From the NCBI RefSeq assembly GCF_000378965.1, contig NZ_KB900536.1:1480052-1544051 (forward strand): a stretch of 64,000 nt of DNA. The letters are read 5' to 3'. Origin of the DNA: Thioalkalivibrio thiocyanodenitrificans ARhD 1 (GTDB lineage Bacteria; Pseudomonadota; Gammaproteobacteria; Ectothiorhodospirales; Ectothiorhodospiraceae). Shown here in pieces: positions 45,094 to 60,513 of the stretch. Numbering within the stretch: the stretch's first letter is position 1; each line of letters opens with the position of its first letter. The translations under genes and the position numbers were made by a program. The notes beneath the pieces were generated by a model. It saw only the letters and a list, made by a program, of their open reading frames with translations, had not been told where the DNA came from and searched no databases.

Positions 45094-45117
45094 GCCCGGC
45101 TCCCATTGGGGAGGGAA

Positions 45118-45142: not shown

Positions 45143-45151
45143 CATTTCTAC

Positions 45152-45181
45152 ACTATAGGTACGGTTCCGCCATGGTGTCAA
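45152..45181 (-). promoter_or_regulatory. dcw cluster promoter (Pmra)
   Basis: TTGACA (45181-45176) and TATAGT (45157-45152) with an 18-bp spacer on the minus strand. Transcript start expected near 45145, about 50 bases before the mraZ GTG. Confidence 0.85.
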
Positions 45182-45224
45182 GGAAAAACAGGGCCTGCCG
45201 AGCAAAAATAGTGCTTGTGTCACA

Positions 45225-45395
45225 AAGACTTAGAGCGGGGTCCTAATGGTGGGAGCAGTGCGTCCAGGCGAGCTCGAAACAGCGCATTGGGTTCACGGAG
45301 TTGGGGCCGACTGTTCACAAGTCACTTTAACTGAAGCGGGGTCCTCACCCCTGGGTTCCCGGTCCCGGGGACCCAAGGGTGCTTCATGCTTTGGA
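45225..45395. other. Non-coding spacer with palindrome and direct repeats
   Basis: The 400-bp gap between the dcw promoter and the rnpB terminator has no plausible gene. It holds direct repeats GCGGGGTCCT (near 45235 and 45336) and a large imperfect palindrome (about 45348-45382) with arms around CCTGGGTTCCCGG and CCGGGGACCCAAGG. Nothing else is seen up to 45587. Confidence 0.5.
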
Positions 45396-45587
45396 ACCGC
45401 GCCGGCCGGACGCATCCATAACCGGGTCCCTCGCGAGCAACGAAGCCCTCGAGGACCTGTACGGAACTCGCGAATACCGTACGGACAGGCCGAACACGAG
45501 ACAACCAATTGATCCTTCGATAATTTCCGTCACGAGCATTCTGGCGGGACCCGGCCGCATGTTGGCCCGGAGCCCTCCAGAACACCA

Positions 45588-45617
45588 TAAAGAGCGCCCC
45601 GGGGTCTGCCGGGGCGC
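45588..45617 (-). terminator. Rho-independent terminator of rnpB
   Basis: On the minus strand GCGCCCCGG and CCGGGGCGC pair perfectly around six bases, followed by TCTTTATGG. It lies just beyond the 3' end of the RNase P RNA. Confidence 0.92.
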
Positions 45618-45628
45618 GAAATTCAAAG

Positions 45629-45974
45629 GGAGCCGGCCTGTAAGCCGGGTTCTGTCGGGGACAGTCATTCATCTGGGACGCGCGTCACCGCGCGCCTCAA
45701 GCAGCCTACCCGGGTGCGATGCGGGCCACACCGATGCACCCCTATTTGGCCTTGCTCCGGGTGGGGTTTGCCGTGCCGCGGCGTGTTGCCACCCGCGCGG
45801 TGCGCTCTTACCGCACCATTTCACCCTTACCTGTGCCCGAAGGCCATCGGCGGTATGTTTTCTGTGGCACTTTCCGTCGGCTCGCGCCGCCCAGGCGTTA
45901 CCTGGCACCCTGCCCTGCGGAGCCCGGACTTTCCTCGACGGCGCAAGCACCGCCGCGACTGTCCGGCCGACTCC
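45629..45974 (-). ncRNA. rnpB: RNase P RNA (class A)
   Basis: About 346 nt. On the minus strand the 5' end reads GGAGTCGGCCGGACAGTCGC. The universal block GAGGAAAGTCCGGGCTCC follows, then GGCAGGGTGCCAGGTAACGC, GGTAAGGGTGAAATGGTGCG, GGAGCAAGGCCAAATAGGGG, GATGAATGACTGTCC and the 3' end ACAGAACCCGGCTTA. These are the conserved regions of bacterial type A RNase P RNA, the ribozyme that matures tRNA 5' ends. Its place near mraZ and rsmI matches pseudomonads. Ends are estimated to a few bases. Confidence 0.97.
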
Positions 45975-45982
45975 GGGTGGTT

Positions 45983-46010
45983 AGACTACCGGGGTTTCGG
46001 AAAGTTACAA
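45983..46010 (-). promoter_or_regulatory. rnpB promoter
   Basis: TTGTAA (46010-46005) and TAGTCT (45988-45983) with a 16-bp spacer; the predicted start is within a few bases of the RNase P RNA 5' end. Confidence 0.6.
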
Positions 46011-46217
46011 GAGGCTGTTGGAAACAGGGAGGGAGAACCGCGCATCGAAGAGAACCGCTATCACTGGGCGCGCAACGGAAGGCCTGGCCCCTGCGTGCGA
46101 CACCCCGCCGCATCTCTGGCATTTCATTGACCGGGGTCATGCCCGGACGCAGTGGCACTGTTAACCTGATCACAAGAAAGAGACTCAATCTCCGAAAGGG
46201 AAACTCCAGGTGGCCAC

Positions 46218-46475
46218 ATGAGTATCGGGATACTCGTCCTATTCAGCGTCTGGCTCGCCCTGTTCATCTCCATCGCGTGGGGATTCCTGGCCCGTGTGCG
46301 CCATAGCAGGCGCGTTCACGCCCAGGCAACCCGTTGCGTCGAGGCGCTGAGGGCTCAGCGCCGCGTGCTCGATTGCCTGCAATGCCCCGAACGGGCGACC
46401 TGCGCGGAGGCTCATCTGCCCAACCACTCGCCCTGGCCCGAGGACGACTGCCCGCTGCGGTCACGCGGTGCTTAG
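46218..46475 (+). CDS. Small single-pass membrane protein with Cys-rich tail
   Basis: 85 residues. An N-terminal membrane helix (ILVLFSVWLALFISIAWGFL, about 5-24) is followed by a basic stretch and a tail with CVEALRAQRRVLDCLQCPER, then TCAEA and DDCPL. Five cysteines could bind metal or form disulfides. AGGTGG precedes the ATG. No family is recognised. Codon use looks like the surrounding genes and the signal-anchor pattern is convincing, but a gene this short could still be spurious. Confidence 0.55.
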   Translation: MSIGILVLFSVWLALFISIAWGFLARVRHSRRVHAQATRCVEALRAQRRVLDCLQCPERATCAEAHLPNHSPWPEDDCPLRSRGA

Positions 46476-46557
46476 ATCAGCCGCGGCGGCGAGCGATGCC
46501 GGGGAGTCGGACCGGAACAGACCTCCGCCTGGATCAGAAAAACACCATCAGAACCGT

Positions 46558-46705
46558 CAACAGTCTGTTGTGAAAGTCTCCGGTGGATGCCAGGCAAGGC
46601 GCAAAGCAAGCAACAGCGCAGCGCAGCGCACAGGTGGGTACACGGGCATGCTGGACGTTTTCCAACGCAGCATGGCGCCAGCCGAGAGTCATTCAACAGC
46701 CTGTC
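46558..46705. repeat. MITE-like element with CAACAG-type ends
   Basis: The left end has the palindrome CAACAGTCTGTTG followed by TGAAAGTCTCCGG. The right end, read inverted, is GACAGGCTGTTGAATGA followed by CTCTCGG. The interior contains GATGCCAGGCAAGGCGCAAA, a motif recalled from dispersed non-coding repeats of beta/gammaproteobacteria. No protein is encoded. A partial copy of the end (GAGGCTGTTGGAAAC) lies at 46011-46025 by the rnpB promoter. Confidence 0.5.
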
Positions 46706-46757
46706 AAAGGGAACGGAGTGTGAAGCCTACACCCCCCCGGCCCTTTTCCTACCTTCT

Positions 46758-48413
46758 TCAGGCGGGTGCGGGCGGCCGTAAACCAAGCTGCTCGTCACCT
46801 GCCTCATGCACCTTGACACAGTTGCGACCCGCATCCTTGGCGCGGTACAGGGCAGCGTCTGCCGCAGCGATCAGGCGCTCGGGGCTCAATGCGTCGTGCG
46901 GCACCCGGGTGGCCACACCGACGCTGACCGTGACATGAGGCATGGGTTGCCCTTCGCACGCCTCCAGGTTCAGTCGGGACGCCATTTCGCGGACACGTTC
47001 CGCGACGGCTCTCGCACCGTGCGCGCCGGTATCGGGCAGAACCACGACGAACTCCTCGCCGCCGAAACGCGCCGGCAAGTCCCCCGGCCGCTGCACGGCC
47101 GAGTGGAGCACGGCCGCCAACTGCCGCAGACACTGGTCCCCGGCCAGGTGTCCGTAAAGGTCGTTGTGCCGCTTGAAATGGTCGATGTCCACCATGAGCA
47201 GGCTCAAGGGCATTTCCTGGCGTTCGCAGCGGGCCCATTCCCGGGCCAGTACCTCCTTGAAGTGCCGGTGGTTGGCGAGCCCGGTCAGGCCGTCCTTGAC
47301 GGACATTTCCTGGAGCACCCGGTTGGATTGCTCGAGTGCGCCGGCGAGTTCCACCAGTTGCGTCTGTGAGTGACTCAGCCTGCGATTGATGCGCATGATG
47401 TAGCCTGCTGCCCCGATAACCATGACCAGCAGTCCGAACAGCAGCAGGAGCCAGTGCCAGTAGTGGCGCAGCAGGGTCTCCAGATCGACGCGGTCCAGGT
47501 CCGCATAGGGGCCGATACGCAGTTCCCGCAGCAGCTCGTGCACCGGCGTGTAATCCAGCGGCATGGTCCAGCCGGCGGACTGGCTGGCGCGCGCCTCCGG
47601 GCTGTCCGGCGCGAGCTGCAGCAGCGCCACGCCCACCTGGTGGGCAAGCTGTTCCGGAACGTGCGCACTGCGCGCGAAGGCCCATTCCGGATACAGCCGC
47701 GTGCTGAGCAGGAAGGGAAAGCCCGTCACCTGCCTGCGATTGATCACCTTGAACCGTTCCATGTGCACCACCCCTTCGGCGGCCATGCGCTCCAGGGTGT
47801 CCGTACGCACGGTACCCGCATCCACTTCGCCCGCGGCGACGGCCAGCACGATCTGGTCCTGGGGCAGACCGACGTACTCGATGCGGGTGAAATCCCGCTC
47901 GGGACGGATGCCGGCCTCACGGAACTCGCGCAAGGCCATCAGATAACCCCCGAAGGCGTCTGCGCGCACCGCCATGACTGACCTGCCGCGCAGATCCCGG
48001 AGGGTTTCGATGTCATCGCGGTCCGCACGCGTGAAGATAACCGCGCCGAACTGTGTATGGACACCATCATCGCGCAGGTTGCGCAGGGTGAGGATGCGCG
48101 TCACACCGTACGTTGCCTCGAGTATCGCGTAGGAACCAGGATTGGTGATGACGAAATCCACCGTGCCGGCGGCCATGGCCTCGTCCAGGGAGATATTGTT
48201 GAGGGGAACAACACGAAACTCCCGCCCCGGCACGGCGCGGGTAAGGTACTCTGCGGTAGGTGTCCATGCCCGCACCGCCGCCTCCGGGCCGCGATGGGCC
48301 AGCACGCCGATACGCACCTCCTCGCCTGATTTTGCTTCGTCCCCAGAGGCCGTCAGTGGCAACAACGCCATGACAGCCAGGAGAATTGTCCTGCGCACTG
48401 ACTGCACACGCAC
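46758..48413 (-). CDS. PhnD-like periplasmic binding domain fused to GGDEF diguanylate cyclase
   Basis: 551 residues from GTG. A signal segment (about 8-24) is followed by a PhnD/SsuA-type solute-binding domain (about 30-285) with IGVLAHRGPEAAVRAWTPTA and DFVITNPGSYAILEATYGVT. One membrane helix (WHWLLLLFGLLVMVIGAAGY, about 320-340) leads to a short coiled coil and a GGDEF domain: KDGLTGLANHRHF, VDIDHFKRHND, and the active site GGEEF preceded at the right spacing by the I-site RPGD. It should make cyclic di-GMP in response to a periplasmic ligand, possibly phosphonate/phosphite-like or an anion; the ligand is unknown. Confidence 0.9.
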   Translation of the reverse strand: MRVQSVRRTILLAVMALLPLTASGDEAKSGEEVRIGVLAHRGPEAAVRAWTPTAEYLTRAVPGREFRVVPLNNISLDEAMAAGTVDFVITNPGSYAILEATYGVTRILTLRNLRDDGVHTQFGAVIFTRADRDDIETLRDLRGRSVMAVRADAFGGYLMALREFREAGIRPERDFTRIEYVGLPQDQIVLAVAAGEVDAGTVRTDTLERMAAEGVVHMERFKVINRRQVTGFPFLLSTRLYPEWAFARSAHVPEQLAHQVGVALLQLAPDSPEARASQSAGWTMPLDYTPVHELLRELRIGPYADLDRVDLETLLRHYWHWLLLLFGLLVMVIGAAGYIMRINRRLSHSQTQLVELAGALEQSNRVLQEMSVKDGLTGLANHRHFKEVLAREWARCERQEMPLSLLMVDIDHFKRHNDLYGHLAGDQCLRQLAAVLHSAVQRPGDLPARFGGEEFVVVLPDTGAHGARAVAERVREMASRLNLEACEGQPMPHVTVSVGVATRVPHDALSPERLIAAADAALYRAKDAGRNCVKVHEAGDEQLGLRPPAPA

Positions 48414-49116
48414 CCCTGCTCTGCGCGCGCCCGCTCATGGTCATTCCGATGCGGGCCAGCGCGTTCTTCTTGTTTGTCCGCGTGGGCAATGGCGGTCGTC
48501 GTCCCTGTGTCGGGCGGCGCACACCTTGAACTCCCCACGCCATACTATCCGCAAACGCGGGGTACGCCACTCTTTCCCACAACCCTCTTAAGGAATAATC
48601 CTGATACAGACGACCGCGCAGCAGAGGGCGCTCGGGTGGGTCGCCCCGGGTTCTTCCCAGACTTCACGGACACATCGATCAAGCCTCACACTGAGCGCGG
48701 ATGTGTGTCATGGCAGGTAGAAGACCATTCTCACCGGAGTTCAAGCGGGATCCGGTCCGGACTGGTGCGATCCGAATCGCGCGTTGCCGAGCCGCCTTCC
48801 CGATTCGACGGATCGGTACGTACCTGAAGGTCTCGCCCAGTGGGTAACTACGGCTGGCGTGAGCGAGTGCCGGGAGTGCCACGCCTCCTCAGTATGCGCG
48901 TGGTCCCCGCGGACCGAACCATGTTGCCCGGGTGATGCGGATCAACGCAATTCAGGGTGCCCCGCCGCGGGCACGGTGGCGCATCCGGCATTTGTCTCAA
49001 TGTTGCACACCTTCAATCAATCATTCCGAAGCACGACACCGATGTGGAAAAAGAGGCGGTATGATCATCTGCCGGATACCCCTTGTGTCGGGTAATTACC
49101 AAACTTGTACATACAC
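48414..49116. other. Gene-poor spacer in the accessory block
   Basis: About 700 bp without an intact gene. 48710-48985 contains fragments of an IS3-family element (separate entry). 48414-48700 shows no recognisable coding, RNA or repeat structure. From about 49080 the GC content drops into the next gene. Confidence 0.6.
48710..48985 (+). pseudogene. Degenerate IS3-family transposase remnant (OrfA start joined to OrfB piece)
   Basis: ATG at 48710 reads MAGRRPFSPEFKRD, the OrfA N-terminus of IS3-type elements, then decays. In another frame near 48810, DRYVPEGLAQWVTTAGVSE resembles the OrfA helix-turn-helix. From 48920 HVARVMRINAIQGAPPRAR resembles an early OrfB segment (VARLMR...). Frame changes and missing parts show a deleted, non-functional copy. 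It marks past IS activity beside the low-GC operon end. Confidence 0.55.
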
Positions 49117-49872
49117 TCATTGGTCACCAACACCGTTTGCTTTGCTCAATACTTCCATTACTTCATCATCAAAAATATAAGCCATTGACCAGACAAGCTT
49201 CCTTTCAAACGTCTTCCCCTCCCATGAGCCACTTCTAAAGCGAATGACCACGACGTCCTCGTCAAAAGACACCTCCCAATCACCGGGGTCACACCCGAAC
49301 ATACCATTCAGCTTCTCGACGACTTCAGCGGTCTCCCTCCCCCCGTATTCGGCACCGGCTCCAGAACATAAGCGAACCCGCCGACAAGCGCTCCCAGGAA
49401 CGTCTCTCCACACTGTTACCGATGCAAGCCTCCGCATATACCTTGGATTAAATCCACCAAAGCGCCGAACGACGGTCCTCCCACACACGACATCTTCACG
49501 CGTCCCTCGTGGACTTGGCCAATAATCAAGCAGAGGTCTATCAATTGACACCTCAATGCTCGAACTATCAAAAGACCCACGGATCTTTCCGCCCACATGA
49601 CTTACCTTCCACCCAGCCGCTCTGACCGTTCGTTCCACATCTGACTTTAGGAACAAACATAGACGCCACGTCACCGTGACAAAAGCAAGCGCCACCAGAA
49701 TCAACGCGGCGTCACGATGGCCAACCATTTTAGGAGTGGATGGATGATCAGGAAGGAACCAGTTCTGGACCGAGACAACAAATATTAAAATAGACCCAAT
49801 CGCCAGAATATATGAAACATACCAAGTCACCGCGAGCGCGCTCGGCGGAGCATCGTATCTACAAAGACCCAT
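49117..49872 (-). CDS. Two-helix membrane protein, candidate immunity/partner of the upstream gene
   Basis: 251 residues from ATG 49872, where AAGAAGG lies 6 bases upstream; it overlaps the end of the preceding gene by 14 bp. Two membrane segments (about 14-40, TWYVSYILAIGSILIFVVSV, and about 54-75, ALILVALAFVTVTWRLCLFL) precede a soluble domain of about 170 residues (GGKIRGSFDSSSIEVSIDRP and onward). No family is recognised. GC is far below the chromosomal genes (near 48% by eye), like the last part of the preceding gene, so both look acquired together. As the last gene of the operon after a variable C-terminus, it fits an immunity protein; this is inference only. Confidence 0.75.
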   Translation of the reverse strand: MGLCRYDAPPSALAVTWYVSYILAIGSILIFVVSVQNWFLPDHPSTPKMVGHRDAALILVALAFVTVTWRLCLFLKSDVERTVRAAGWKVSHVGGKIRGSFDSSSIEVSIDRPLLDYWPSPRGTREDVVCGRTVVRRFGGFNPRYMRRLASVTVWRDVPGSACRRVRLCSGAGAEYGGRETAEVVEKLNGMFGCDPGDWEVSFDEDVVVIRFRSGSWEGKTFERKLVWSMAYIFDDEVMEVLSKANGVGDQ

Positions 49873-50350
49873 GTAACGCCTTCTTGCCAATCGAGGCTAT
49901 TCTGTTGGCCTCCAGTTTCGAGGCCGCATAGAGTTTACCATTCAGCACGCCATACATAATTCGATCAAATTCGGAGAAAATTGCACCAAGAATCCAGTTC
50001 TTAAGTATTGAGATCACGAATGCGACTAATAGAGCAACAAATATGGCGACGAGGATCGGAGACGCGAATCCAGACAAGAAACCAAAGGCTATTGCACCCA
50101 AATAACCCGAAAGGACGGTCAAGGCCAAATCAATTGCCCCCGCACCAAGCGCGCTCCATGGATTTCCGGTAGCCGAGTACGTTAAGTATGCAGTTAGCAT
50201 AGCACTGAGCCCTGCTAACACATTACTAACGTCTTTAATTGCTGTGACATAATGGGCAAGAGCGACGCCAGCCTTAGCGAGAAAGCTGGCAAGATCAGCA
50301 ACCACACTCAGTATGGATAGACCGGCGCTTGCAAGGTCAGTCTCAGAATA
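49859..50350 (-). other. Low-GC C-terminal module of the transglutaminase-fold gene
   Basis: Codons 882-1044. GC falls from the mid-60s to under 50% within a few codons after the Gly-rich motif. It encodes hydrophobic stretches such as VLAGLSAMLTAYLTYSA and ASPILVAIFVALLVAFVISI. Sharp composition break at a domain boundary, continuing into the next gene, suggests recombination of a C-terminal module plus partner. Confidence 0.6.
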
Positions 50351-52993
50351 CGAACCATTCCCTCCACCCCCAATCTTCCAGGCCCCCGCTCCAGTCTCCG
50401 CATCAAAGATCACATACCCGGCCCCGCTCCACCCCGGCACGCTGACGGGGTCGGTGTGCACGATCACTTCCTTGCCCACCGCCAGTGCCGCGCGGATCTC
50501 GTTCATGGTCAGGCTGTTCTGACGGATGTGCGGCAACGCCTCGGCCTGGTTGGCCGGGGTAATATGATAGATGCGCTGGCCCTGTTGGGAAGCCTTCTGC
50601 AGCGCCTTGACCGCCGAGACCGCCTCGCCGGGGTTCTCGGGCGTCACGAACATCTGCTCGGGTACGGCGTGCTCCAGGGCGGAACTCAAGGCACCCAGCT
50701 GGAAGTTGAAGTTCTTCCAGGTCTCATGGCCCTGCCCGTCGACGCTCGAGACGTGCGCCACCCGGTCCAGGTCCATCTCCACGCCGCCGGGGGTGATGCT
50801 TCTCGGAATACCGAAGAAGTAGGTGACGTTCGGCACGTAGCCGTAGGTACCGACCGAGGTGGCCAGCTGGAAGTGGCTCTGCTGCGTCAGGGCGGACAGA
50901 TGCCCCAGGGCCAGATACTGGGCGAAGTAGCCCAGCAGCCCCGCGTGGAACATGTCTCCCAGCAGCTCTTCTCTTGTCAGGCCCTCAAGCAGTGCCTCAT
51001 TCTCGGATTCGAGGATGTCCCGGGTCTGTTCCAGGCGCGTCTGCGCCTCTTCCAGGCTGCCTACCGCCACGCTGCCGCCGATCACGCCCACCGCCAGGTA
51101 GGAACCGGCCACCACCTTGTTGGGGTAGTGGCGGGTGCCGTGCACGGGGTCCCGGACGCTGTAGCGGAATGCGAGTTCCTCGCCCAGGCTCATGGGCGAG
51201 CCGGTGAGTACGGTTTCCCCTTTCACCTTGAGCTCGGGCACCACCTGGATGAGATAGGCCGGGATGCTGGAGGGCAGCTGGCTGATGTTGATGTCGGTGA
51301 TCTCGCCCTCGGGCAGCAGCGCAATAAGGGCATCTTCATCGGCCTGGGTCGCGGGGCGGAACGAGAGGGTGATGCGCGCATTGTTGACCTGGGCCCAGGG
51401 GAAGCTGGTCTGGGCCAGGGGATCACCCAGGATGTCGGCTCCGAGGCCGAAGCTGATGCGCGGCTGCAGCGCCTGGGGCAGGACCGCGTAGCGCACGCCT
51501 TCAACAGCCCGCGGATAGGGCAGTCCGCTCGGCAGGATGGGCTCCTCCCGCACAATGACCTTTCGACCGCCGATGACCTCGCCCACGGTGGGTTCGTGCA
51601 TCTGTCCGATGCACGCCTCCAGCGCCTGACGGGCATCCTCCTGGGCTGCCTCAAGCAGGGTGGAATCAAGCCCCTGGACCCAACCCTCGGATTCGTTGAC
51701 GGCACCGCTTTGTAAAAATCTGTCGGTCAGGGCTTGGGCGTCGATCCCGGCGATGGCCGCCACGTCCAGGCCTTCCAGGAATTCGTATTGCTTGAAGCTC
51801 GCATCCAGGGCAAGCCAGGTGTCGGCGCCGCGCATCACCGCGCCCCGCGAGGGCAGGAAGTCGATGGCCGCCTCGGCCCAGACATGCTCCATGCGCACAT
51901 GGGTCACACGGCCGCCCTGGATGAGCCCGGTCACCGGGATGCCTCCGGAGGCGGCATAGTCCATGGCCTCCTCGATACTCTCGAAACCACCCGCCCAGTT
52001 GCGGAACCTGTCCTCGGGCACCTCGATGGTGCCGTGGACATAGCGGGCGGGCACGTCAGAGGCCCGCAGCAGGGCCACCAGCAACCCGGCGATGTCCATG
52101 GCGTTGCCTCGTTGCGCCGACAGCGTCAGGTCGCTGTCCTGCACGGCGCCCCAGGTGGGCAGCCATTCGACGTTGTTGCGCACCCAGTGGTAGATCTCCA
52201 CCGGCTGGTGATTCAGTTCCGCCGCCTTTGCGCGGATCTCCGGACTGAGCCGGATCTCGATGGTTTCATCCAGGTAGGCCGGATCATCGGCACCGGGAAG
52301 CAGATCGTAGGTGTAGCCTTCCAGGCCCGCCCATTGCGCCAGCGGATTGTCCAGGAGCCCCGCGCCCAGAAAGCCGTCCCGGCCTTCCCGCGGCAGATTG
52401 TCCGGGTTGGGCCGCTGGGGGCCGTGGGGCAGCTGCTGCGGGTCGAAGGGATGCTGGGATCGCTCGAGTTGTCGCGCTGAGAGACGCCGTTCGGCGCGTT
52501 CGATGCGATCGCGCAGTTCGCCTTCCGATTCGATGGTTTCGATGCCGGTGAGGTCCTCAAGGAGGGATCTCATTTCCTCCCGGTAGGCGGCGACCGTTTC
52601 GTGATGCCGGGCGACGATTTCCCCGGGCACAGCGCGCTCCCGCAGACGGGCCTCGATCCCGTCGAACTCGTGCAGGATGCCCTGGTCCAGGGCGGCGATC
52701 TGGCGGCGCAGGTCGGCGAGTGCCCGGCGTTCTTCGGCGATGGCCCGGCCCTGGCCGATACCGCGTTCAGCGGAGCGCAACACCTCTCGGGCCTCACGAA
52801 GCGAGGCCGCCAGGCGTTCCCCCTTGGTCGGGGCCCTGACGCGCTCTTCCTGGTGCCCGTGCGAATCGGCATGTAACGCCGCGGCCAACGGTTGGGTGAT
52901 CAACATGGTGAATGCAACGATCACCACCATCGCGACCGTTCGACAAAAGAGGGTGTGCCGGAAGATCAATGGAAAACCTGCTGTGGTACACAT
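49859..52993 (-). CDS. Secreted transglutaminase-fold protein with variable hydrophobic C-terminus
   Basis: 1044 residues. Signal segment about 17-40; coiled coils about 50-180; a transglutaminase-like core about 255-400 with PVEIYHWVRNNVEWLPTWGA, then GNAMDIAGLLVALLRASDVP and ARYVHG, HVWAEAAIDF (His) and WLALDASFKQYEF (Asp). The position of the catalytic Cys (4 before the Ala of DIAG) is Ala, so it is probably inactive. A large middle region of unknown fold follows. At 853-882 the motif PGWSGAGYVIFDAETGAGAW and a Gly-rich GGGGNGSY precede about 160 hydrophobic residues (several membrane helices) encoded in low-GC DNA. Such proteins are known next to RHS-type toxin genes. Here the C-terminus itself looks like an exchanged module. 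Starts 42 bases after the 1211-residue gene. Confidence 0.88.
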   Translation of the reverse strand: MCTTAGFPLIFRHTLFCRTVAMVVIVAFTMLITQPLAAALHADSHGHQEERVRAPTKGERLAASLREAREVLRSAERGIGQGRAIAEERRALADLRRQIAALDQGILHEFDGIEARLRERAVPGEIVARHHETVAAYREEMRSLLEDLTGIETIESEGELRDRIERAERRLSARQLERSQHPFDPQQLPHGPQRPNPDNLPREGRDGFLGAGLLDNPLAQWAGLEGYTYDLLPGADDPAYLDETIEIRLSPEIRAKAAELNHQPVEIYHWVRNNVEWLPTWGAVQDSDLTLSAQRGNAMDIAGLLVALLRASDVPARYVHGTIEVPEDRFRNWAGGFESIEEAMDYAASGGIPVTGLIQGGRVTHVRMEHVWAEAAIDFLPSRGAVMRGADTWLALDASFKQYEFLEGLDVAAIAGIDAQALTDRFLQSGAVNESEGWVQGLDSTLLEAAQEDARQALEACIGQMHEPTVGEVIGGRKVIVREEPILPSGLPYPRAVEGVRYAVLPQALQPRISFGLGADILGDPLAQTSFPWAQVNNARITLSFRPATQADEDALIALLPEGEITDINISQLPSSIPAYLIQVVPELKVKGETVLTGSPMSLGEELAFRYSVRDPVHGTRHYPNKVVAGSYLAVGVIGGSVAVGSLEEAQTRLEQTRDILESENEALLEGLTREELLGDMFHAGLLGYFAQYLALGHLSALTQQSHFQLATSVGTYGYVPNVTYFFGIPRSITPGGVEMDLDRVAHVSSVDGQGHETWKNFNFQLGALSSALEHAVPEQMFVTPENPGEAVSAVKALQKASQQGQRIYHITPANQAEALPHIRQNSLTMNEIRAALAVGKEVIVHTDPVSVPGWSGAGYVIFDAETGAGAWKIGGGGNGSYSETDLASAGLSILSVVADLASFLAKAGVALAHYVTAIKDVSNVLAGLSAMLTAYLTYSATGNPWSALGAGAIDLALTVLSGYLGAIAFGFLSGFASPILVAIFVALLVAFVISILKNWILGAIFSEFDRIMYGVLNGKLYAASKLEANRIASIGKKALHGSL

Positions 52994-53035
52994 CGAAGTC
53001 GATCCCTCGAAAAAACCGTTTATTCCGTTCAGAAC

Positions 53036-56000
53036 TCAGATCTCGCCGGAGATCCCGCGAATCAGCCAGGAGAGGGCTTCGCGCAACTGGCGCGCCTCCG
53101 GCTCGTGAATACGCGCTAGCCAGTCCGCCACCTTCAAGAGATGGAACACGGCCTTCTCCGGATCGCCACGCTCATGGAAGGAGTAGGCTTGGTCCAACTT
53201 CTCGAGGGCCCGCCCATAGTCCGCGTGGAACTCCAACCGGCCCAGAAGCCCAACCCGTACCTCATCGAACGATGGCGGCGACGAAACCTGGAAGCGGTGT
53301 CGGCTGGTGCCGTATTCCACCAGGCTCACCCCCTCGCGCAGTTCGATTTTTGCGCTGACCCAGGCATCCTCGACGTCGTCCGGCAGCAACCACCAGAACA
53401 CCCGCTCCAGTTCCTCGCCGGCTGCAAACTCAAGGTCGAACACCACGGTGTACGGATCAAGCGGAACGCCCACCCCAGGATCAAGAAGCACCCCGTCGGC
53501 CGTCTCCAGGGTCAGGCGAACGGATGCCAGGTCGCCCCGGTTGAGGATCCGCCAGTGGACCGGAACGGCCATCCCGGCGCGATGCAAACCTGGTGCTGGC
53601 TGGACGTGTTCAAGGGCATCAAGCAACAGCCGGGCAAAGACGCCCTCCGCGCCCTGCGCGTGGGCCTGTGCCAGCATGTCGAATCCGGCAATCACGGCCC
53701 TACCGGAACCGAACTGATGAACCGCCATGGCCGTGCCATCCTGTGGCCGACCCCGGGGCACCCTGTACTCGGCCACCGGCACGGCACCCACAAGTCGAAG
53801 CGCCAGGGACCACTCACTGTCCGGGAAGCCCGCCTCCGGCACATCGATCGGCGCGCCTGCGACCGGCTCGATACCGGTCGCCTCCGGCAACATGCCTACG
53901 ATCCGGACCCCGAACACGTCCAGAGAATCGCCGTCCATCATCAACTGCTGATTACGATGATCCCGGCCACCGGCCATGACGATGCCTGCGCCCCCGTAGA
54001 TCGCTTCGCGAAGCTCGCGCTCCACCTGCGGCTTGAGGGCCACATCGGACGAAAGCAGCAGGTAGGCGCTGTAGCCACCACTCCGCAGTTCTCGTGCAAA
54101 AGCATCACGGTCGGTCACGATGGTGTGGAACCAGCCCGCATCCCGGAGCAGGGACGTCAGAAAATCACGCTGTTCGGCGACTCCATCAGCTGACAACGGA
54201 TGTACGCCTGCAAAGGTGAACGCACCCAACTCCATGCCCGTCTCGGGATAATCGCCACACGCCGTCTCGACAAGACCGGTGTCAAACTCCCGCACGGTTC
54301 CATCCTCCTGCTGAACGGTGGCCAGCAATCGAACATGGCCTGTGAGCGCTTCACCGGCCTCGGATGCCTCCACAAGCAGCCGGATACCATTCACCGTGAG
54401 GGCCTGGATGCCGAGATTGGCCTCCTGCCCGGGATTCCGGTCAACGGGGAAGCCGTCTCCGATGCGAGCGGTCTCCGTGTCGAGCAGGAGCCCTGATCCA
54501 TCAAAGAGACTCACCTGCAAGGTGTCACCATGAATCAACCCGCCGGGCGGCATCAGATCCCACTGCATTCCGCCGACGCCTTCACACTGCTCCCTGCGCG
54601 GCGCGTCCATCAGGACCAGAAGCCGTCCACGCCCACCCAACGCAGGTGTTGATAGGAATTTCTCCTCCACACCAACGGCGGCATGGTCAAGGACCCGAAC
54701 CTCTCCCTGGATCTCCGCACTGAGTACGGCCATCAACACAGTGCCCGCCGGTTCGAGCGCCGACCAGGAGCCCGTCAGGCTGGCGACGCCGTCACGGGGA
54801 AGGTCCAAGGTCTTCGACCAGCTGGCCAGCTCCTGTTCGTTCTCCGGATCCAGCAACGTGAGGGTCACCGGCAGATCCACCAAGGCATCATTGCCGTGGT
54901 TGCTCAGCCGGGCTTCCAGGTACAGGGATTCGCTGCGCAACACGGGATCGGGCGTAGCCGAAACGCTGCCGGAAAGACCTGCACCCGTTTCACTGGTGGA
55001 CAACACCCCGAACTCGGTACTGGTGACGGCACGGGACACCCCTTCGGCATCACGAACCGTCAGGACAACCTGATAAACGCCTGCCGGCGCGGACCCCAAT
55101 GGCATGGACCGAACCATGTCCTGTTGGCTGCCCGGCATCAGCGTACGCAGTGCCAGTTCGTCACTCCACATCGGACTGCCGGCAACATCCAGCACCTGCA
55201 GACTCGCCGTATAGCCCTCCAACTGCAGGTTCGGTGCGGTATTGCGGAAGCGGGCGGTAATCACCACCGTCTCCAGGGGCGCGTAGACCGCCTGATCCGT
55301 ATTCACCGAGGCGCCGAGCCCGGTGTCCTGCGGCGCATCGATTCTGAACGCCGAGACCACTTCGTGGCTGGATCCACCGTCCTCCTCAATCAACCGCAGC
55401 ACGACCTCGTAGTCGCCAGCGTAAAGTCCCGAGGTATCGATCAGGCGCGGCGTCACGGAGACGAGCGCACCGGCCGCCACGGCCAGGGCATCGATGCCGG
55501 GCAGAACCGCCACCACGGCGCCGGCGCCATCCCGAACCTCGATGGTGGCGGTAGCTGTTGCGTCCACGGCATCGAGGTTGGCGATCTCGACAGAGACACT
55601 CACCGCTTCCCCGGGGAGATAGCTGCTCTTGTCCGTGGACAACGCGATGTCAAAGCCCGAAGGCAGAACGTCAACACCCTGGGGGCCCAGGAGGCGGGTA
55701 TGCTCACGGCCTGTGAGATCGGTGTAGGTGATCACCACCTGGTCCACAACAGGCCGATGTTCCCCGGGCTGCGGATCCATGACGGTCACACCGAAATCGA
55801 GATCCTCGAGACGCCCTATGGTGAACGTTTCGAAGGACCACTCGATCTCGATGCGGTCCGCAAAGGTTTCCACCCGTTCCGGAGAGACAGCAAACGAGTC
55901 CGGATCCAGCTCGATGCCCTCACTCGACAGCGTGGCAATGACAGTGACATTCCGATAATCCGGGTCACCATCGATGGGTTGACCGCCGACCATGACCCCA

Positions 56001-56671
56001 TCGAATGCCAGGCCTGATTGATAGCGCGTATCCCTCCAGTTGACCACGCCAAGCTCCAGGACGTAGTTTCCGATCTCAGGAAACACGTAGCCGGAATGAA
56101 CCCACCCGGTGTAGCCGCACCCACTGCTGTAACAACGCCCTGAATCCGTCCCGAGCGGACTCCACGCCGGGCCACCCCGGATGATCTCCACGCTCTCGGG
56201 CGTGAGTTGTGCCTCCACCTCCGGCATACCGAAACCGGGCACGATGTTGCCCGTCGAGCGGGTACGTGCAGTGAACAACAGGGCGACCTGTTCCATGGAC
56301 TCATCCAGAACCCGGGCCCATGCGTAATCGGCATATCCCCCGCCGTCGGTCGTCACATAGTTGAAGTAGAAGGCCAGCTCCTCCCCGGACTCTGCGGAGA
56401 ACAGCGGGGAGCGCAGGCGAGAGCCATTGGTCCCCCCGATTCCAGGCAAGGTGGCGCCACGAAAGCTGCTCCCGGTGGTTGCCACCCAGCCGTACTGGGC
56501 CGCCCCCGTGGGCGACAGGGTGACCACCCCGTCCTCCGGGGAAGTGCCGCAGTTCCCCTCGCAGGTCCAACCGCTTGGGATCCCGTTCTCGAATCCGGCG
56601 CCCGGAACAGCGGCCGAGAGGCACGCGAGCAAGCCCAGCAACGCGATGCGCATCCATACGGATCGTGTCAT
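53036..56671 (-). CDS. Large secreted protein with CARDB-like repeats and Rossmann-like domain
   Basis: 1211 residues. Signal peptide 1-25. An N-terminal beta-rich domain (about 25-215) has paired Cys (CEGNCG and CYSSGCGY) and resembles surface-anchored jelly-roll modules. Several CARDB/Ig-like beta-sandwiches follow (about 340-650), each opening like STDKSSYLPGEAVSVSVEIA or VNTDQAVYAPLETVVITARF. A region near 835-1000 (YSAYLLLSSDVALKPQVERE, AGIVMAGGRDHRNQQLMMDG, GSGRAVIAGFDMLAQ) looks like a glutamine-amidotransferase-like Rossmann fold without an obvious catalytic triad. The end is a short helical hairpin. Its ATG overlaps the stop of the upstream gene (ATGA). Function unknown; a surface or periplasmic scaffold is likely. 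Confidence 0.85.
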   Translation of the reverse strand: MTRSVWMRIALLGLLACLSAAVPGAGFENGIPSGWTCEGNCGTSPEDGVVTLSPTGAAQYGWVATTGSSFRGATLPGIGGTNGSRLRSPLFSAESGEELAFYFNYVTTDGGGYADYAWARVLDESMEQVALLFTARTRSTGNIVPGFGMPEVEAQLTPESVEIIRGGPAWSPLGTDSGRCYSSGCGYTGWVHSGYVFPEIGNYVLELGVVNWRDTRYQSGLAFDGVMVGGQPIDGDPDYRNVTVIATLSSEGIELDPDSFAVSPERVETFADRIEIEWSFETFTIGRLEDLDFGVTVMDPQPGEHRPVVDQVVITYTDLTGREHTRLLGPQGVDVLPSGFDIALSTDKSSYLPGEAVSVSVEIANLDAVDATATATIEVRDGAGAVVAVLPGIDALAVAAGALVSVTPRLIDTSGLYAGDYEVVLRLIEEDGGSSHEVVSAFRIDAPQDTGLGASVNTDQAVYAPLETVVITARFRNTAPNLQLEGYTASLQVLDVAGSPMWSDELALRTLMPGSQQDMVRSMPLGSAPAGVYQVVLTVRDAEGVSRAVTSTEFGVLSTSETGAGLSGSVSATPDPVLRSESLYLEARLSNHGNDALVDLPVTLTLLDPENEQELASWSKTLDLPRDGVASLTGSWSALEPAGTVLMAVLSAEIQGEVRVLDHAAVGVEEKFLSTPALGGRGRLLVLMDAPRREQCEGVGGMQWDLMPPGGLIHGDTLQVSLFDGSGLLLDTETARIGDGFPVDRNPGQEANLGIQALTVNGIRLLVEASEAGEALTGHVRLLATVQQEDGTVREFDTGLVETACGDYPETGMELGAFTFAGVHPLSADGVAEQRDFLTSLLRDAGWFHTIVTDRDAFARELRSGGYSAYLLLSSDVALKPQVERELREAIYGGAGIVMAGGRDHRNQQLMMDGDSLDVFGVRIVGMLPEATGIEPVAGAPIDVPEAGFPDSEWSLALRLVGAVPVAEYRVPRGRPQDGTAMAVHQFGSGRAVIAGFDMLAQAHAQGAEGVFARLLLDALEHVQPAPGLHRAGMAVPVHWRILNRGDLASVRLTLETADGVLLDPGVGVPLDPYTVVFDLEFAAGEELERVFWWLLPDDVEDAWVSAKIELREGVSLVEYGTSRHRFQVSSPPSFDEVRVGLLGRLEFHADYGRALEKLDQAYSFHERGDPEKAVFHLLKVADWLARIHEPEARQLREALSWLIRGISGEI

Positions 56672-59400
56672 GGGGAGTCCTCCACGCCTTCTATGCGCAG
56701 TCTTATGCGTACGCCCTTGCTTTCGCCCGGGGTGATACTTTCGGGTTCCGCTCCCAGGTGACCCTCAATCCGGATGTTCGGCGGCACGATCAGGTCGTCG
56801 GTACGCACTGAGCTCACGGTCATGCCCAGCACGTTCACGACTTGAATCGGGTAAGAACCGGCCTCTTCAAACGCTTGGGTGATCGTCCCCAAAGAGACAA
56901 GACTGGAGGATGCGGCAGCCATGACCGGGATGTGCGCGTCACCCTGATGTACCACGTTTCCATCAGGGTCAATCAAGGCATAGTCAAAGGTCAGCTCGGA
57001 GTCGACGTTCGAGAGGTTTTCCAAACTCGCCAGGAACTCGACCTCCACCTCCTCACCCCTGATCACCTGGGTCGGAACGGTATGGATACCCAGCGAGCGC
57101 AGACGGCTGGTTTCCACCACACGGATGAGCACCATCTCTTCGGACAAGAGAACGTCCCGATGCTCCGTGAGGACTTGCACATTTATGCGGTAATCCCCGG
57201 GCGGCCAGTTTCCGGGTGACCAGGTGAATTCACGGGTCACCAATTCGCCCGGATCGATGTCGAATCGTGCGTCACGAGGACCTCCCGGGACCGGGATCAC
57301 GAAGTCCTCACGCAGGTCGTTATTGATCCCCAGCACGGTCGCCGCCATCACCACCCGCTGACTCTCATCCCCTTCGTTCTCGACCTCCGCCGAGACCAGC
57401 ACCTCATCGAAGGCCTCATAAGCCACGCGATCCTTGACCACGCGCACAATTCCTATGCCATCCGTAGCGGCCTTCTGCAGCGGGATATCCAGACGAACGA
57501 CACCATGCTGCTGGAGGACGAAACCATTGGATCCCGAGAGATAACCAACCGCGCTCGCGGACACCTCGAACGCCAGCGATTCTATGTCCGTGATCTGGTA
57601 TTGCCCGCTCTCATCGGTCGAAGAGGACAAGCCACCCACTGTCACGGTCGCCCCGGCAACCGCTAGATCCGTCTCCACGTCATAGACGCGCCCGTGCAGC
57701 GTGGTGGCAGGATCCGGGAGCGGAATCAGGTGCAACGTGCCGATGGTCACCTGGGATCCGGGAACGGCAACCAGATTCACCGCAACGGATTGGTAGCCTT
57801 CCCGGGTAACATGCAGCACGAGTTCCCCGGCTTCCAGATCACCAAGGACGAATACGCCTGCACCATCAGTGGCGGCCGCTGCCGTCCCATCCTTGAGCGT
57901 GACCGATACACCTTCCATGGCAAGACCGGTATCCACGTCCACGATGGTCCCGGTGATCGAGACCGGCCCATCCGGCACCTGGCCATCATCCGGATGCAGC
58001 GCAGGGGAGAATTCCACCCGCTGCCCCGCCTGCACCGTCGCGGTTGCATTGACCGAATGGTATCCCGGGGCAACCACCTGAATGTGCACCAAACCCGGCG
58101 ACACCGTTACCGCGTAACGGCCATCCATGCCTGTCGAGACCGACACATCGGCATCACCACTGAACCCGATTGTTGCTGTCACGGGCGAGCCGGTGCCAGC
58201 ATCGCTCAGGCGTCCGGAGATCAGCGCGGTTTGAGGAGCAGCGGGAAGGCGCACCGCTCCCAGATCCAGGAACTGACCGGCCTGCAGGGAAATCGACTGG
58301 ACGTACCCCGCGTATCCGGCGGCACCGTAACTTACGGTGTACCCTTGCGGCTCCAGGTCCTCGAGTGTGAACCGTCCGTCCGTTCCGGTGGGAAGGGTTA
58401 TGCTCGAACCATCGTCACCCGCGGCAGTGACCATCACCCCATTGAGCGGCACCCCAGTGGAGTCATCAAGAACCCGGCCACCGATCGCCGCCAGCCTCGG
58501 TACCGGCGGACTTGTGACGGCTCGCGGCGCCTCGATTGCGCGCAAGGCCAAAGCCGTGGCCAACACACTGCCATCCCAGGATCCGTTCGCACCCTGCCTT
58601 GCGAGCAGCTGATTCAGCGCAGCATCGTATCTGGACGTGTCCGTGGTGAGGGGTATCAGGGCCAGAAGGGCTTCGGCGCTTTCCCAGATCTCCCCCCAGA
58701 GCCCCTGCTCCTGATTGTTCCAGAGAAAGTCTGCGGCACGCTGCAATGGCGCAGACAGGTTGTAGTCAAAGCGGTGGGGTTGAAGAACCGACAGCGCACG
58801 GGATGTCAGATAGAAAGACGGGAGACTCACAGAAGTGGCCGAGAAAGAACCGTCGGCATGCTGGCGTTGCAGCAGGTAGGCAATGGAAGGTTGAATCACG
58901 GCCCCGCTTGCGACTCCCGCAACCGCCAAGGCTTCCAGCGCGTCAAGTGTATCCAGAACACTGCTCTGATCACCCGGACGTCCGCCAAAACCGCCGTCCT
59001 CGTTCTGATGGATGAGCACTGCCTCGACTTCATCAGAACCGGACTGCCCTGCCAGTCTTCGCGCGATCAGCACACGGGACAGGTACGGCAAGGCGCCGTC
59101 CACGCTGGCCGCATCAAGGTATCCCAGCCCGCCTGCCTGCGCGGACTCCGAACCCCGCCCCGGGAGACGAAGCGCACGCAGGGATTCGCTGGTGGAGTGA
59201 TACGGGAGACTCTCGTCAGAGGACGACGCGAATCGCCCATCGTCATGCTGTTGATGCAACAGCCACTCCACCGCGGCCTCGTTCCCCTTTGCGGGAGAAG
59301 CCAGCACGGCGCAGACAATGAGAGGGAAGAATACGGCGCCAGAAATGATGCGCCAGCAGAAATGCCCATCCGGCAATCGTGATCGAGCAGCCATGCTCAT
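56668..59400 (-). CDS. Secreted alpha/alpha-toroid protein with carboxypeptidase-regulatory-like repeats
   Basis: 910 residues. Signal/anchor about 15-40. Residues 42-290 hold squalene-cyclase/prenyltransferase-type toroid repeats with the pattern Q-x-x-x-DG-x-F/W: LLHQQHDDGRF, LIHQNEDGGFGG, LLQRQHADGSF, LLARQGANGSWDG. Then four beta-sandwich repeats of the carboxypeptidase regulatory type (about 305-645), each with G-x-V-x-D...T-D-x-x-G-x-F/Y (TGTDGRFTLEDLEPQGYTVS, STDESGQYQITDIES). Two more Ig-like domains end the protein. No cyclase DxDD motif is seen, so an enzyme role is unlikely; the toroid resembles the binding/thioester-type domain used in alpha-2-macroglobulin relatives. First gene of the operon. 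Confidence 0.87.
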   Translation of the reverse strand: MSMAARSRLPDGHFCWRIISGAVFFPLIVCAVLASPAKGNEAAVEWLLHQQHDDGRFASSSDESLPYHSTSESLRALRLPGRGSESAQAGGLGYLDAASVDGALPYLSRVLIARRLAGQSGSDEVEAVLIHQNEDGGFGGRPGDQSSVLDTLDALEALAVAGVASGAVIQPSIAYLLQRQHADGSFSATSVSLPSFYLTSRALSVLQPHRFDYNLSAPLQRAADFLWNNQEQGLWGEIWESAEALLALIPLTTDTSRYDAALNQLLARQGANGSWDGSVLATALALRAIEAPRAVTSPPVPRLAAIGGRVLDDSTGVPLNGVMVTAAGDDGSSITLPTGTDGRFTLEDLEPQGYTVSYGAAGYAGYVQSISLQAGQFLDLGAVRLPAAPQTALISGRLSDAGTGSPVTATIGFSGDADVSVSTGMDGRYAVTVSPGLVHIQVVAPGYHSVNATATVQAGQRVEFSPALHPDDGQVPDGPVSITGTIVDVDTGLAMEGVSVTLKDGTAAAATDGAGVFVLGDLEAGELVLHVTREGYQSVAVNLVAVPGSQVTIGTLHLIPLPDPATTLHGRVYDVETDLAVAGATVTVGGLSSSTDESGQYQITDIESLAFEVSASAVGYLSGSNGFVLQQHGVVRLDIPLQKAATDGIGIVRVVKDRVAYEAFDEVLVSAEVENEGDESQRVVMAATVLGINNDLREDFVIPVPGGPRDARFDIDPGELVTREFTWSPGNWPPGDYRINVQVLTEHRDVLLSEEMVLIRVVETSRLRSLGIHTVPTQVIRGEEVEVEFLASLENLSNVDSELTFDYALIDPDGNVVHQGDAHIPVMAAASSSLVSLGTITQAFEEAGSYPIQVVNVLGMTVSSVRTDDLIVPPNIRIEGHLGAEPESITPGESKGVRIRLRIEGVEDSP

Positions 59401-59430
59401 GTCCCTTGATCCACTCCTTGGATGCGCCTT

Positions 59431-59459
59431 TTTATATCATGCAGGGTACGTGGTCGCAA
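59431..59459 (-). promoter_or_regulatory. Promoter of the secreted-protein operon
   Basis: TTGCGA (59459-59454) and TATAAA (59436-59431) with a 17-bp spacer on the minus strand, about 30 bases before the 910-residue gene. The four genes downstream are overlapped or closely spaced, so one transcript is likely. Confidence 0.7.
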
Positions 59460-59564
59460 CCTTGCAAGCATTCACCCCGACCGACGCGGATCGGGAAGGG
59501 CCACGCCCTCCAACCCTGTCCTTCCGACCACCACTCTGCGTGCACCGATGGACGAATGACCCCT

Positions 59565-60419
59565 TCATCCATCCGGGTCTCTCATCTTCACGGCCAAGGC
59601 ATAGAGCTGGTTCCTGGACGCCCCGGTGACCTCGGCGGCCAGTTTCGCGGCCTTCTTCACGGGCAGTTCCTCAAGCAGCATTCGCAGCACCCGTTCCGCC
59701 TCGGGCGGTACGCCCGCGTCCCGGACCTCGGGGGCGCCGGCCGCAAGCACCACGAATTCCCCCTTACTGTGATCCTCGTGTGCGGCGAGCCACTCGCACA
59801 GTCCGGCGAGGCTGCCGCCCTGCACCTGCTCGAAGGTCTTGGTCAGTTCCCGGGCCACCACGGCGCGGCGCTCCGGGCCCAGGGTCTCGCGCATGTCCGC
59901 AAGGCAGGCGGCGATGCGGTGGCTGGATTCATAGAAGATGAGCGTGCGCGGATCGCCGGCCAGGGCCTGGAGCCGCTGGCGGCGGGCGGGGCCTTTCGCG
60001 GGGAGAAAACCCTCGAACACGAACCGGTCGGACGGCAGGCCGCTGACGGACAGGGCCGCCATGGCGGCCACCGGGCCCGGCACGGGAGAGACCCGGATAC
60101 CCGCCTCCCGGGCGGCGGCAACGAGCCGGTAGCCGGGATCGCTGATCAGCGGCGTGCCCGCATCGGAGACCAGCGCCACGGTGGCGCCCGAGCGCAGGCG
60201 CTCGATCAGGCCGGGCACCTGCCGGGGCTCATTATGCTCATGCAGGCTCACCTGCCGGGCGCTGATGCCGAAATGGCTCAGCAGGACGCCGGTGCGCCGG
60301 GTGTCCTCGGCGGCCACCACGTCCGCCGCGCGCAGTGTCTCCAGGGCGCGCGCGGAGATGTCGCCCAGGTTGCCGATGGGCGTGGCCACCACGTAGAGGA
60401 CACCCGCTTCAATTGACAC
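59565..60419 (-). CDS. rsmI: 16S rRNA (cytidine1402-2'-O)-methyltransferase RsmI
   Basis: 284 residues from GTG 60419 (GGGGGTGG upstream). It starts with VLYVVATPIGNLGDISARAL; LVSDAGTPLISDPGYRLVAA and VPGPVAAMAALSVSGLPSDR are the SAM-binding tetrapyrrole-methylase-fold motifs; FYESSHRIAACLADM follows. It adds the 2'-O-methyl on C1402 of 16S rRNA, complementing RsmH. Divergent from lpoA. The longer open frame upstream overlaps the lpoA signal peptide and is not used. Confidence 0.95.
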   Translation of the reverse strand: MSIEAGVLYVVATPIGNLGDISARALETLRAADVVAAEDTRRTGVLLSHFGISARQVSLHEHNEPRQVPGLIERLRSGATVALVSDAGTPLISDPGYRLVAAAREAGIRVSPVPGPVAAMAALSVSGLPSDRFVFEGFLPAKGPARRQRLQALAGDPRTLIFYESSHRIAACLADMRETLGPERRAVVARELTKTFEQVQGGSLAGLCEWLAAHEDHSKGEFVVLAAGAPEVRDAGVPPEAERVLRMLLEELPVKKAAKLAAEVTGASRNQLYALAVKMRDPDG

Positions 60420-60513
60420 ATCCACCCCCGGTCCAGATACTGGCTCCTGCCAGCGACAGCGCCCGCCCGCCAGTCTACGCGCACCCACGGACACAAGACC
60501 AATCCCGACACCC

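What the first reader, a model, noticed from the sequence alone, without database searches (positions are those of the whole stretch)
45977..59564. Accessory island inserted between rnpB and rsmI
The order mraZ - rnpB - rsmI - lpoA - yraN is familiar from pseudomonads. Here 13.5 kb separates rnpB from rsmI and holds a MITE-like repeat, an IS3 remnant, a PhnD-GGDEF fusion, a Cys-rich membrane protein and the secreted-protein operon, part of it with low GC. The rnpB flank looks like an integration-prone site.
Basis: partly seen in the sequence, partly recalled or inferred. Interest (0 to 1): 0.55.

Follow-up and report, generated by a model that had tools for sequence, protein, structure and literature searches.

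The report
Variable gene island with toxin operon
Between two housekeeping genes this bacterium carries a block of foreign-looking genes that its close relatives lack at that spot, and the main cargo looks like a secreted toxin with an exchangeable tip, a matching protective gene and two partner genes, a combination also found in several other bacterial phyla.

Summary
Window ~46,012-59,545, between rnpB and the rsmI stop, is a 13.5 kb accessory interval. The closest congener (RsmI 91% identical) has 385 unrelated bp there; three others have 2-3 kb of other cargo. Of 46 genomes (own included) with both genes together, 42 have gaps of 25-613 bp; the four above 2 kb are all of this genus. No tRNA, no integrase among the ORFs scanned, no end repeats: a tolerant site with turnover, not a shown integrase target.

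The 'secreted-protein operon' is a polymorphic-toxin operon. The 1044-aa protein is 93% identical to a congener's up to residue ~874; then the tip and the next gene are unrelated. Of 68 database loci with relatives, 59 hold the boundary; 74 tips are almost all mutually dissimilar (some NlpC/P60, Ntox16, one CDI nuclease), and orphan cassettes occur. The window's tip and next gene recur together in Desulfurivibrio. The transglutaminase domain lacks its cysteine (44 of 44), as in the RHS toxins of Zhang et al. 2012, but the window protein has no RHS repeats; a 375-aa domain without Pfam match precedes the tip, and two secreted-looking partner genes recur. By hydropathy 58 of 72 tips look membrane-spanning; the best guess is depolarisation. 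Toxicity is untested.

The parts
45625..45974 (-). rnpB (RNase P RNA, class A), left constant flank
   Evidence: Rfam RF00010, 336.7 bits, E 1.2e-109
46012..46028 (.). left junction: homology to the closest congener G001 stops here, just upstream of rnpB
   Evidence: blastn 93% identity over 43,818-46,028; in the alignment identity breaks after about 46,012
46218..46475 (+). 85-aa ORF with a hydrophobic N-terminus and several Cys; no Pfam match
46561..46703 (+). MITE-like repeat
   Evidence: six further copies at 73-79% identity in the same genome
46758..48413 (-). PhnD-type binding protein fused to a GGDEF domain
   Evidence: Pfam Phosphonate-bd and GGDEF; 88% identical homologue on another contig of G002
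48701..48847 (+). possible IS3 OrfA remnant
   Evidence: ORF beginning MCVMAGRRPFSPEFKRD; family motif recalled, no database hit
49117..49890 (-). putative immunity gene, 257 aa, two hydrophobic stretches long enough for TM helices, GC 0.51, overlaps the toxin ORF by 32 nt
   Evidence: 35% identical over 243 aa to the gene after the matching orphan tip in Desulfurivibrio; very weak match (18% over 111 aa) to an orphan ORF in G055; GC3 0.49
49862..50353 (-). variable C-terminal tip (residues 881-1044), hydrophobic, GC 0.48
   Evidence: unrelated to the congener's tip although the core is 93% identical; 52% identical over 126 aa to a Desulfurivibrio orphan cassette; GC3 0.47 against 0.82 for the core
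50348..51472 (-). pre-toxin domain (residues 508-882) ending in GYVIFDAETGAGAWKIGGGGNG
   Evidence: 44-row alignment; no Pfam match in 44 members; model pLDDT 92.2; found in 27 of 369 class genomes, own included
51803..52249 (-). transglutaminase-like domain (residues 249-397), residue at the catalytic Cys position is Ala
   Evidence: PF01841 E 9.3e-13; 3isr alignment and 44-row column counts
49859..52993 (-). whole toxin-carrier ORF, 1044 aa, N-terminal hydrophobic leader and helical region
53036..56671 (-). partner protein p1211, NF038132 domain and sub-threshold MG2/E-set matches, apparent signal peptide (by eye)
   Evidence: upstream of the core on the same strand in 17 of 38 loci
56668..59400 (-). 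partner protein p910, prenyltransferase-type toroid repeats plus CarboxypepD_reg repeats, apparent signal peptide (by eye)
   Evidence: near the core on the same strand in 28 of 38 loci
59520..59545 (.). right junction: homology to G001 resumes just before the rsmI stop
   Evidence: blastn 93% from 59,545, alignment slightly further out
59565..60602 (-). rsmI, right constant flank
   Evidence: PF00590 and PF23016

Best explanation
The rnpB-rsmI gap in this genus (probably Thioalkalivibrio) is a tolerant site where accessory genes come and go. Here it received a polymorphic-toxin operon. Three secreted-looking proteins are encoded in order: a toroid/CarboxypepD_reg protein, an E-set-rich protein, and a carrier with an inactive transglutaminase domain, a conserved pre-toxin domain and a short exchangeable tip; the last gene encodes immunity to that tip. 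The likely mechanism: the carrier is exported by Sec and displayed with its partners, the transglutaminase domain binds rather than cuts, and on contact the tip is released near the GAGAYxISGGxNG boundary and inserts into a rival's inner membrane, dissipating its potential, while the membrane-bound 257-aa protein blocks it in kin. Shown by sequence: variable interval, tip swapping, co-travel of this tip with its neighbour gene in one distant genome, orphan cassettes, loss of the catalytic Cys. Inferred: secretion route, contact dependence, cleavage, pore formation, immunity.
For: Variable interval. Core/tip break: DNA identity to the G003 operon ~0.91-0.95 down to about position 50,400 and about 0.5 after it, protein likewise. 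Family: 68 loci, 59 of them with at least one copy reaching the boundary; 22 of 2,701 tip pairs detectably similar at E 1e-4; among 74 tips NlpC/P60 in 7, Ntox16 in 2, CDI EC869-like in 1. Tandem or orphan cassettes: 14 of the 68 loci hold more than one boundary copy, and G055 has three more besides its full-length copy. Same tip with same neighbour in Desulfurivibrio. An ORF of 60 aa or more on the same strand, starting from 90 nt before to 400 nt after the tip's stop, was found for 75 of 78 tips, median distance 4 nt. Membrane tips have membrane neighbours in 36 of 47, other tips in 3 of 12. Tip GC3 below core GC3 in 63 of 72. GxxxG count in 58 membrane tips 100 against a shuffle mean of 69, 0 of 300 shuffles as high. 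Catalytic Cys position lacks Cys in 44 of 44.
Against: No toxicity or protection was tested. The window's own tip has no Pfam match and low model confidence (pLDDT blocks mostly 25-67). Tip and neighbour similarity agree in only 2 of 16 similar tip pairs (against 2 of the other 1,814); one of the 14 disagreements is the window's own second tip relative, L153 (31% over 92 aa), whose neighbour is not detectably similar. The supposed orphan immunity homologue in G055 is very weak and did not pass E 1e-4 in the all-against-all comparison. Downstream ORFs were picked by a simple rule, with no random-gene control. The strict GxxxGxxxG zipper is not clearly enriched (12 against 6.8; 15 of 300 shuffles as high). 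Seven of 44 transglutaminase domains have a Cys two residues before the catalytic column, so activity is not wholly excluded there. p910-like genes are undetected in 10 of 38 and p1211-like in 21 of 38 loci. TM counts come from a simple hydropathy window. No repeats mark the ends.
Confidence: 0.7

Rival explanations
1. The tip is a toxin but not an ionophore: it is an entry or anchoring segment, or acts on another membrane target such as lipid or peptidoglycan synthesis.
For: Some tips on the same core are enzymes (NlpC/P60, Ntox16, CDI nuclease), so the carrier is not tied to pores; the window tip has no recognised family.
Against: 58 of 72 tips of 80-299 aa have two or more predicted TM stretches, and no recognised enzyme covers the window tip.
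Confidence: 0.25
2. An adhesin or surface-matrix operon: the variable tip is a membrane anchor and the small downstream protein an assembly partner; no killing.
For: The two partners look like surface proteins (CarboxypepD_reg, toroid, E-set); most tips are hydrophobic.
Against: Known toxin domains at the same position, orphan cassettes, and low-GC tips differing between near-identical cores.
Confidence: 0.09
3. The interval is a dedicated integration site at rnpB used by a site-specific element.
For: Cargo differs among the five genomes of the genus and starts just upstream of rnpB, though G003 and G004 share one gene.
Against: No tRNA, no integrase among the ORFs scanned, no exact repeat of 9 bp or more between the junction regions; gaps outside the genus are short.
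Confidence: 0.07
4. The 13.5 kb is ancestral at this site and was lost in the relatives.
For: G003 holds an 82-93% identical set of three genes elsewhere, so the operon may be old in the genus.
Against: Absent from the site in G001-G004, which carry other DNA there, and gaps of 613 bp or less outside the genus; GC below that of the flanks.
Confidence: 0.04

Closest known systems
Polymorphic toxins with inactive transglutaminase domains followed by RHS repeats (Zhang et al. 2012, PMC3482391, section 19)
   Same: Transglutaminase-like domain lacking a catalytic residue, apparent secretion leader, diverse C-terminal toxin domains; two of the loci fetched here join the same core region to RHS repeats (L131, L149).
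   Different: No RHS repeats in the window protein; a 375-aa domain without a Pfam match precedes the tip; the TG match begins at residue 249, not immediately after the leader; recurrent partner genes; mostly hydrophobic tips.
CDI ionophore toxins and CdiI immunity (Halvorsen et al. 2024, PMC11630599; abstract and one results section read)
   Same: Helical membrane-directed C-terminal tips, hydrophobic immunity proteins, high polymorphism on a common carrier.
   Different: No haemagglutinin/TPS Pfam match in the carrier and no CdiB-like match among the ORFs scanned; the window's putative immunity protein has 257 aa, against the 72-100 reported there; activity unknown.
Rhs and CDI orphan tip/immunity cassettes (general knowledge; papers seen only as listings)
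   Same: Conserved core, variable tip, tandem orphan cassettes with their own downstream gene.
   Different: Carrier of the window has no RHS repeats; a link to T6SS was not tested.

Membership tests
Polymorphic toxin systems | Conserved carrier with a sharp boundary to mutually unrelated C-terminal tips | tested here: met
   22 of 2,701 tip pairs similar; identity drop at residue ~880
Polymorphic toxin systems | Known toxin domains among the tips | tested here: met
   NlpC/P60 7, Ntox16 2, CDI EC869-like 1 of 74 tips; most tips, the window's included, have no match
Polymorphic toxin systems | Cognate immunity gene directly downstream, travelling with the tip | tested here: inconclusive
   downstream ORF for 75 of 78 tips; the window pair recurs in Desulfurivibrio but not in L153; 2 of 16 similar tip pairs have similar neighbours; protection untested
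Polymorphic toxin systems | Stand-alone or tandem toxin cassettes | tested here: met
   G055; 14 of 68 loci with more than one boundary copy
Polymorphic toxin systems | Toxicity of the tip and neutralisation | not testable with these tools
   needs bench work
Inactive-TG/RHS toxins of Zhang et al. 2012 | TG domain lacking a catalytic residue | tested here: met
   column aligned to the 3isr Cys: A 36, D 7, S 1 of 44; His and Asp kept in 44 of 44; a Cys two residues earlier in 7 rows
Inactive-TG/RHS toxins of Zhang et al. 2012 | RHS repeats follow the TG domain | tested here: not met
   Pfam finds only Transglut_core in the window protein at E 0.1; RHS seen in L131 and L149
Inactive-TG/RHS toxins of Zhang et al. 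2012 | TG located immediately after the signal peptide or TM helix | tested here: not met
   TG match begins at residue 249, after a helical region
CDI (CdiA/CdiB) | TPS secretion domain and CdiB partner | tested here: not met
   no such Pfam match in the operon proteins
CDI ionophore tips | Depolarises target cells | not testable with these tools
   hydropathy and GxxxG excess only
Integrase-driven genomic island | Integrase and att repeats, often at a tRNA | tested here: not met
   no tRNA, no integrase in the ORFs scanned, no exact repeat of 9 bp or more between the junction regions; imperfect repeats not tested

The most novel reading that the evidence does not exclude
A distinct, self-contained toxin-delivery platform: three secreted proteins (toroid/CarboxypepD_reg, E-set, and a carrier with a dead transglutaminase plus a 375-aa pre-toxin domain without a clear solved relative) that display and insert mostly membrane-depolarising tips, spread across several phyla and independent of RHS, TPS/CdiB or T6SS parts.
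Probability: 0.3. Interest if true: 0.8.

Novelty: new variant of a known kind. Interest (0 to 1): 0.57.

Why it matters
If right, it adds an RHS-free carrier and a delivery domain without a Pfam family to the polymorphic toxins. The domain is found in 27 of 369 genomes sampled from the class, own included, so it may be a common weapon hidden under 'transglutaminase-like'. It gives a testable set: many tips on one carrier, most of them apparently membrane-directed, with neighbour genes to pair off. It also shows a small site, with no integrase seen, where such cargo turns over within one genus.

Tried and rejected
Integrase or tRNA-borne island: no tRNA, no integrase among the ORFs scanned, no exact repeat of 9 bp or more between the junction regions. 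Clean empty site: G001 has 385 unrelated bp instead, so no target duplication could be read. Plasmid or phage carriage: plasmids gave 17 records, none covering 80% of the query; the 15 listed cover 21-32%, 7 of them annotated as RHS proteins and 2 as DUF6531; phages gave none. The window's own neighbour gene was found in 1 of 369 class genomes (itself) and its tip in 4 of 369 (itself and three at E 4e-4 to 1e-3). Solved-structure search with the pre-toxin domain: no Foldseek match at E <= 0.001 (best 0.016), best VIA Z 3.6; weak or missing matches do not show a new fold. For the whole protein the TG part matches 3isr (Z 13.0, rmsd 3.5, 158 residues). NCBIfam on the window tip: one hit far below its cut-off, ignored. 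My first reading of which column holds the catalytic Cys (residue 296) was wrong and was corrected by the 3isr alignment. PADLOC and PHROGs were not searched. Papers: the listings (capped: 20 of 64, 10 of 176, 15 of 35; titles and starts of abstracts seen) showed nothing on RHS-free transglutaminase polymorphic toxins or rnpB-rsmI islands; the library lacks most subscription journals, so this is weak evidence of absence. One further paper (PMC10318531) was seen as two passages; not relevant.

Rows dropped before counts: 92 HMM hits to 82 tips (hits short of the boundary, ORFs open at contig ends), then 74 (three duplicates, two RHS-length tips, three under 80 aa). One search left out duplicates, ORFs whose boundary lies before residue 800 and ORFs over 1,310 aa. 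One search left out 11 named loci and those with under 7.5 kb upstream. Of the 68 loci, 8 gave no hit to the boundary profile and 1 fell short of it, several of them being short contigs.
Full report
Where it is. The window is part of an unnamed 3.75 Mb genome. A congener's contig (G003:C21, 60,234 bases) agrees in length and in the match with a Thioalkalivibrio sulfidiphilus ALJ17 record, found as L098, so the genus is probably Thioalkalivibrio; this is inference.

The island. rnpB and rsmI lie 13,593 bp apart by search coordinates. Of 58 genomes searched for both, own included, 46 had them in the same order on one contig: 42 with gaps of 25-613 bp and four over 2 kb, all in this genus. The other 12 lacked a match or had the genes on different contigs or strands; in G007 they lie more than 1 Mb apart. 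Among the 47 genomes held for the family, 38 had both together and the longest gap outside the genus was 436 bp. The closest congener, G001, keeps 93% identity up to window 46,012-46,028 and again from about 59,520-59,545, with 385 unrelated bp between. G001 is a draft of 600 contigs and 82% completeness, but one contig spans the site. G002 holds a Phd-like/PIN pair (the Phd match is below Pfam's cut-off) and two ORFs without Pfam matches, G003 a PIN gene and an NHL-repeat protein, G004 the NHL-repeat protein. So: constant ends, variable cargo, with one gene shared by G003 and G004. The left end stops just upstream of rnpB, where its promoter should lie, which suggests that selection, not a recombinase, sets the boundary; that is inference. 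The PhnD-GGDEF gene has an 88% identical homologue on another contig of G002, so the cargo is modular.

The operon. Four minus-strand ORFs overlap or nearly touch: 910, 1211, 1044 and 257 aa. The first three begin with apparent signal peptides (read by eye). The first has toroid-type and CarboxypepD_reg repeats, the second an NF038132 domain, the third a transglutaminase-like domain.

Why it is a polymorphic toxin. G003 has the first three genes at 82-93% amino-acid identity on a different contig from its rnpB and rsmI, but from residue ~874-880 of the third onward, and in the fourth gene, nothing is shared. DNA identity is 0.91-0.95 over the last 2 kb before position 50,400 and then at the level of unrelated sequence. 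GC3 falls from 0.82 in the core to 0.47 in the tip and 0.49 in the fourth gene. G055, from another family, has one full-length copy followed by cassettes beginning near residue 330, with other tips and other small genes, an IS110-like transposase (by eye) between two of them, and a repeated DNA segment before two cassettes and before a stand-alone ORF. A scan of genome contigs with the core gave 68 loci in Proteobacteria, Nitrospirae, Myxococcales, Firmicutes and others by their record titles; 59 hold at least one copy reaching the boundary GY-I-DP-TGAGAY-ISGG-NGG in varied form, and 14 hold more than one. Of 74 tips, Pfam finds NlpC/P60 in 7, Ntox16 in 2 and a CDI EC869-like nuclease in 1, with weaker hits to a few other families; most have none. 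Only 22 of 2,701 tip pairs are detectably similar.

Immunity. The window tip is 52% identical over 126 aa to an orphan tip in Desulfurivibrio, and the gene after that tip is 35% identical over 243 aa to the window's 257-aa protein. Against this, a second relative of the tip (L153, 31% over 92 aa) has a neighbour that is not detectably similar, and the orphan ORF in G055 that I took for a homologue matches at only 18% over 111 aa and failed at E 1e-4. Across the set, similar tips have similar neighbours in 2 of 16 pairs, against 2 of 1,814 other pairs; the contrast is strong but the count small, and the rows are related. Membrane tips have membrane neighbours in 36 of 47 cases, other tips in 3 of 12.

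Mechanism. Of 72 tips of 80-299 aa, 58 have two or more predicted TM stretches, with an excess of GxxxG spacing but no clear excess of the full zipper. This resembles the CDI ionophores of PMC11630599 (abstract; section on identification). The position of the catalytic Cys holds no Cys in any of 44 full-length proteins while His and Asp stay; seven have a Cys two residues earlier. Zhang et al. 2012 describe such inactive domains in RHS toxins and suggest that they anchor the toxin by binding peptides (PMC3482391; passages, that section whole). In the window protein RHS repeats are missing; two fetched relatives (L131, L149) join the same core region to RHS repeats, so the two designs are related. 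The part between, residues 508-882, folds confidently in prediction (pLDDT 92.2), has no Pfam match in 44 members and no strong match to solved structures. It occurs in 27 of 369 genomes drawn from the class, own included, some in open frames of 1,500-3,600 codons that may carry RHS repeats. Partner genes recur on the same strand: p910-like in 28 of 38 (22 upstream, 6 downstream) and p1211-like in 17 of 38 loci with at least 7.5 kb upstream.

Verdict. The island is real; its cargo is a polymorphic-toxin operon of a variant kind. That the tip kills by depolarisation is a good guess, not a result.

Noticed in passing
401-21821: Many arrays of 7-bp units (TTCAACC, TTCAAAG, CCTTGAA and kin) and one 89-bp unit repeated 3.3 times at 7,996-8,286.
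   Followed up: no
46561-46703: MITE-like element with six more copies in the genome at 73-79% identity.
   Followed up: partly
46758-48413: PhnD-type binding protein fused to GGDEF, with an 88% identical homologue on another contig of G002.
   Followed up: partly
L159:9196-21156: Ottowia locus with six copies of the carrier boundary in tandem, one full-length, with different tips.
   Followed up: partly
L091:700-12000: G055 cassette array: a near-identical segment of about 100 bp precedes two cassettes and a stand-alone ORF, and an IS110-like transposase (by eye) sits between two cassettes.
   Followed up: partly
L131:14508-20627 and L149:315-6827: The same carrier core region joined to RHS repeats, linking the RHS-free and RHS designs.
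   Followed up: yes
L089:4871-6353: Downstream of the G003 operon, an ORF that resembles a REP-associated transposase and a possible GNAT toxin-antitoxin pair (read by eye).
   Followed up: no
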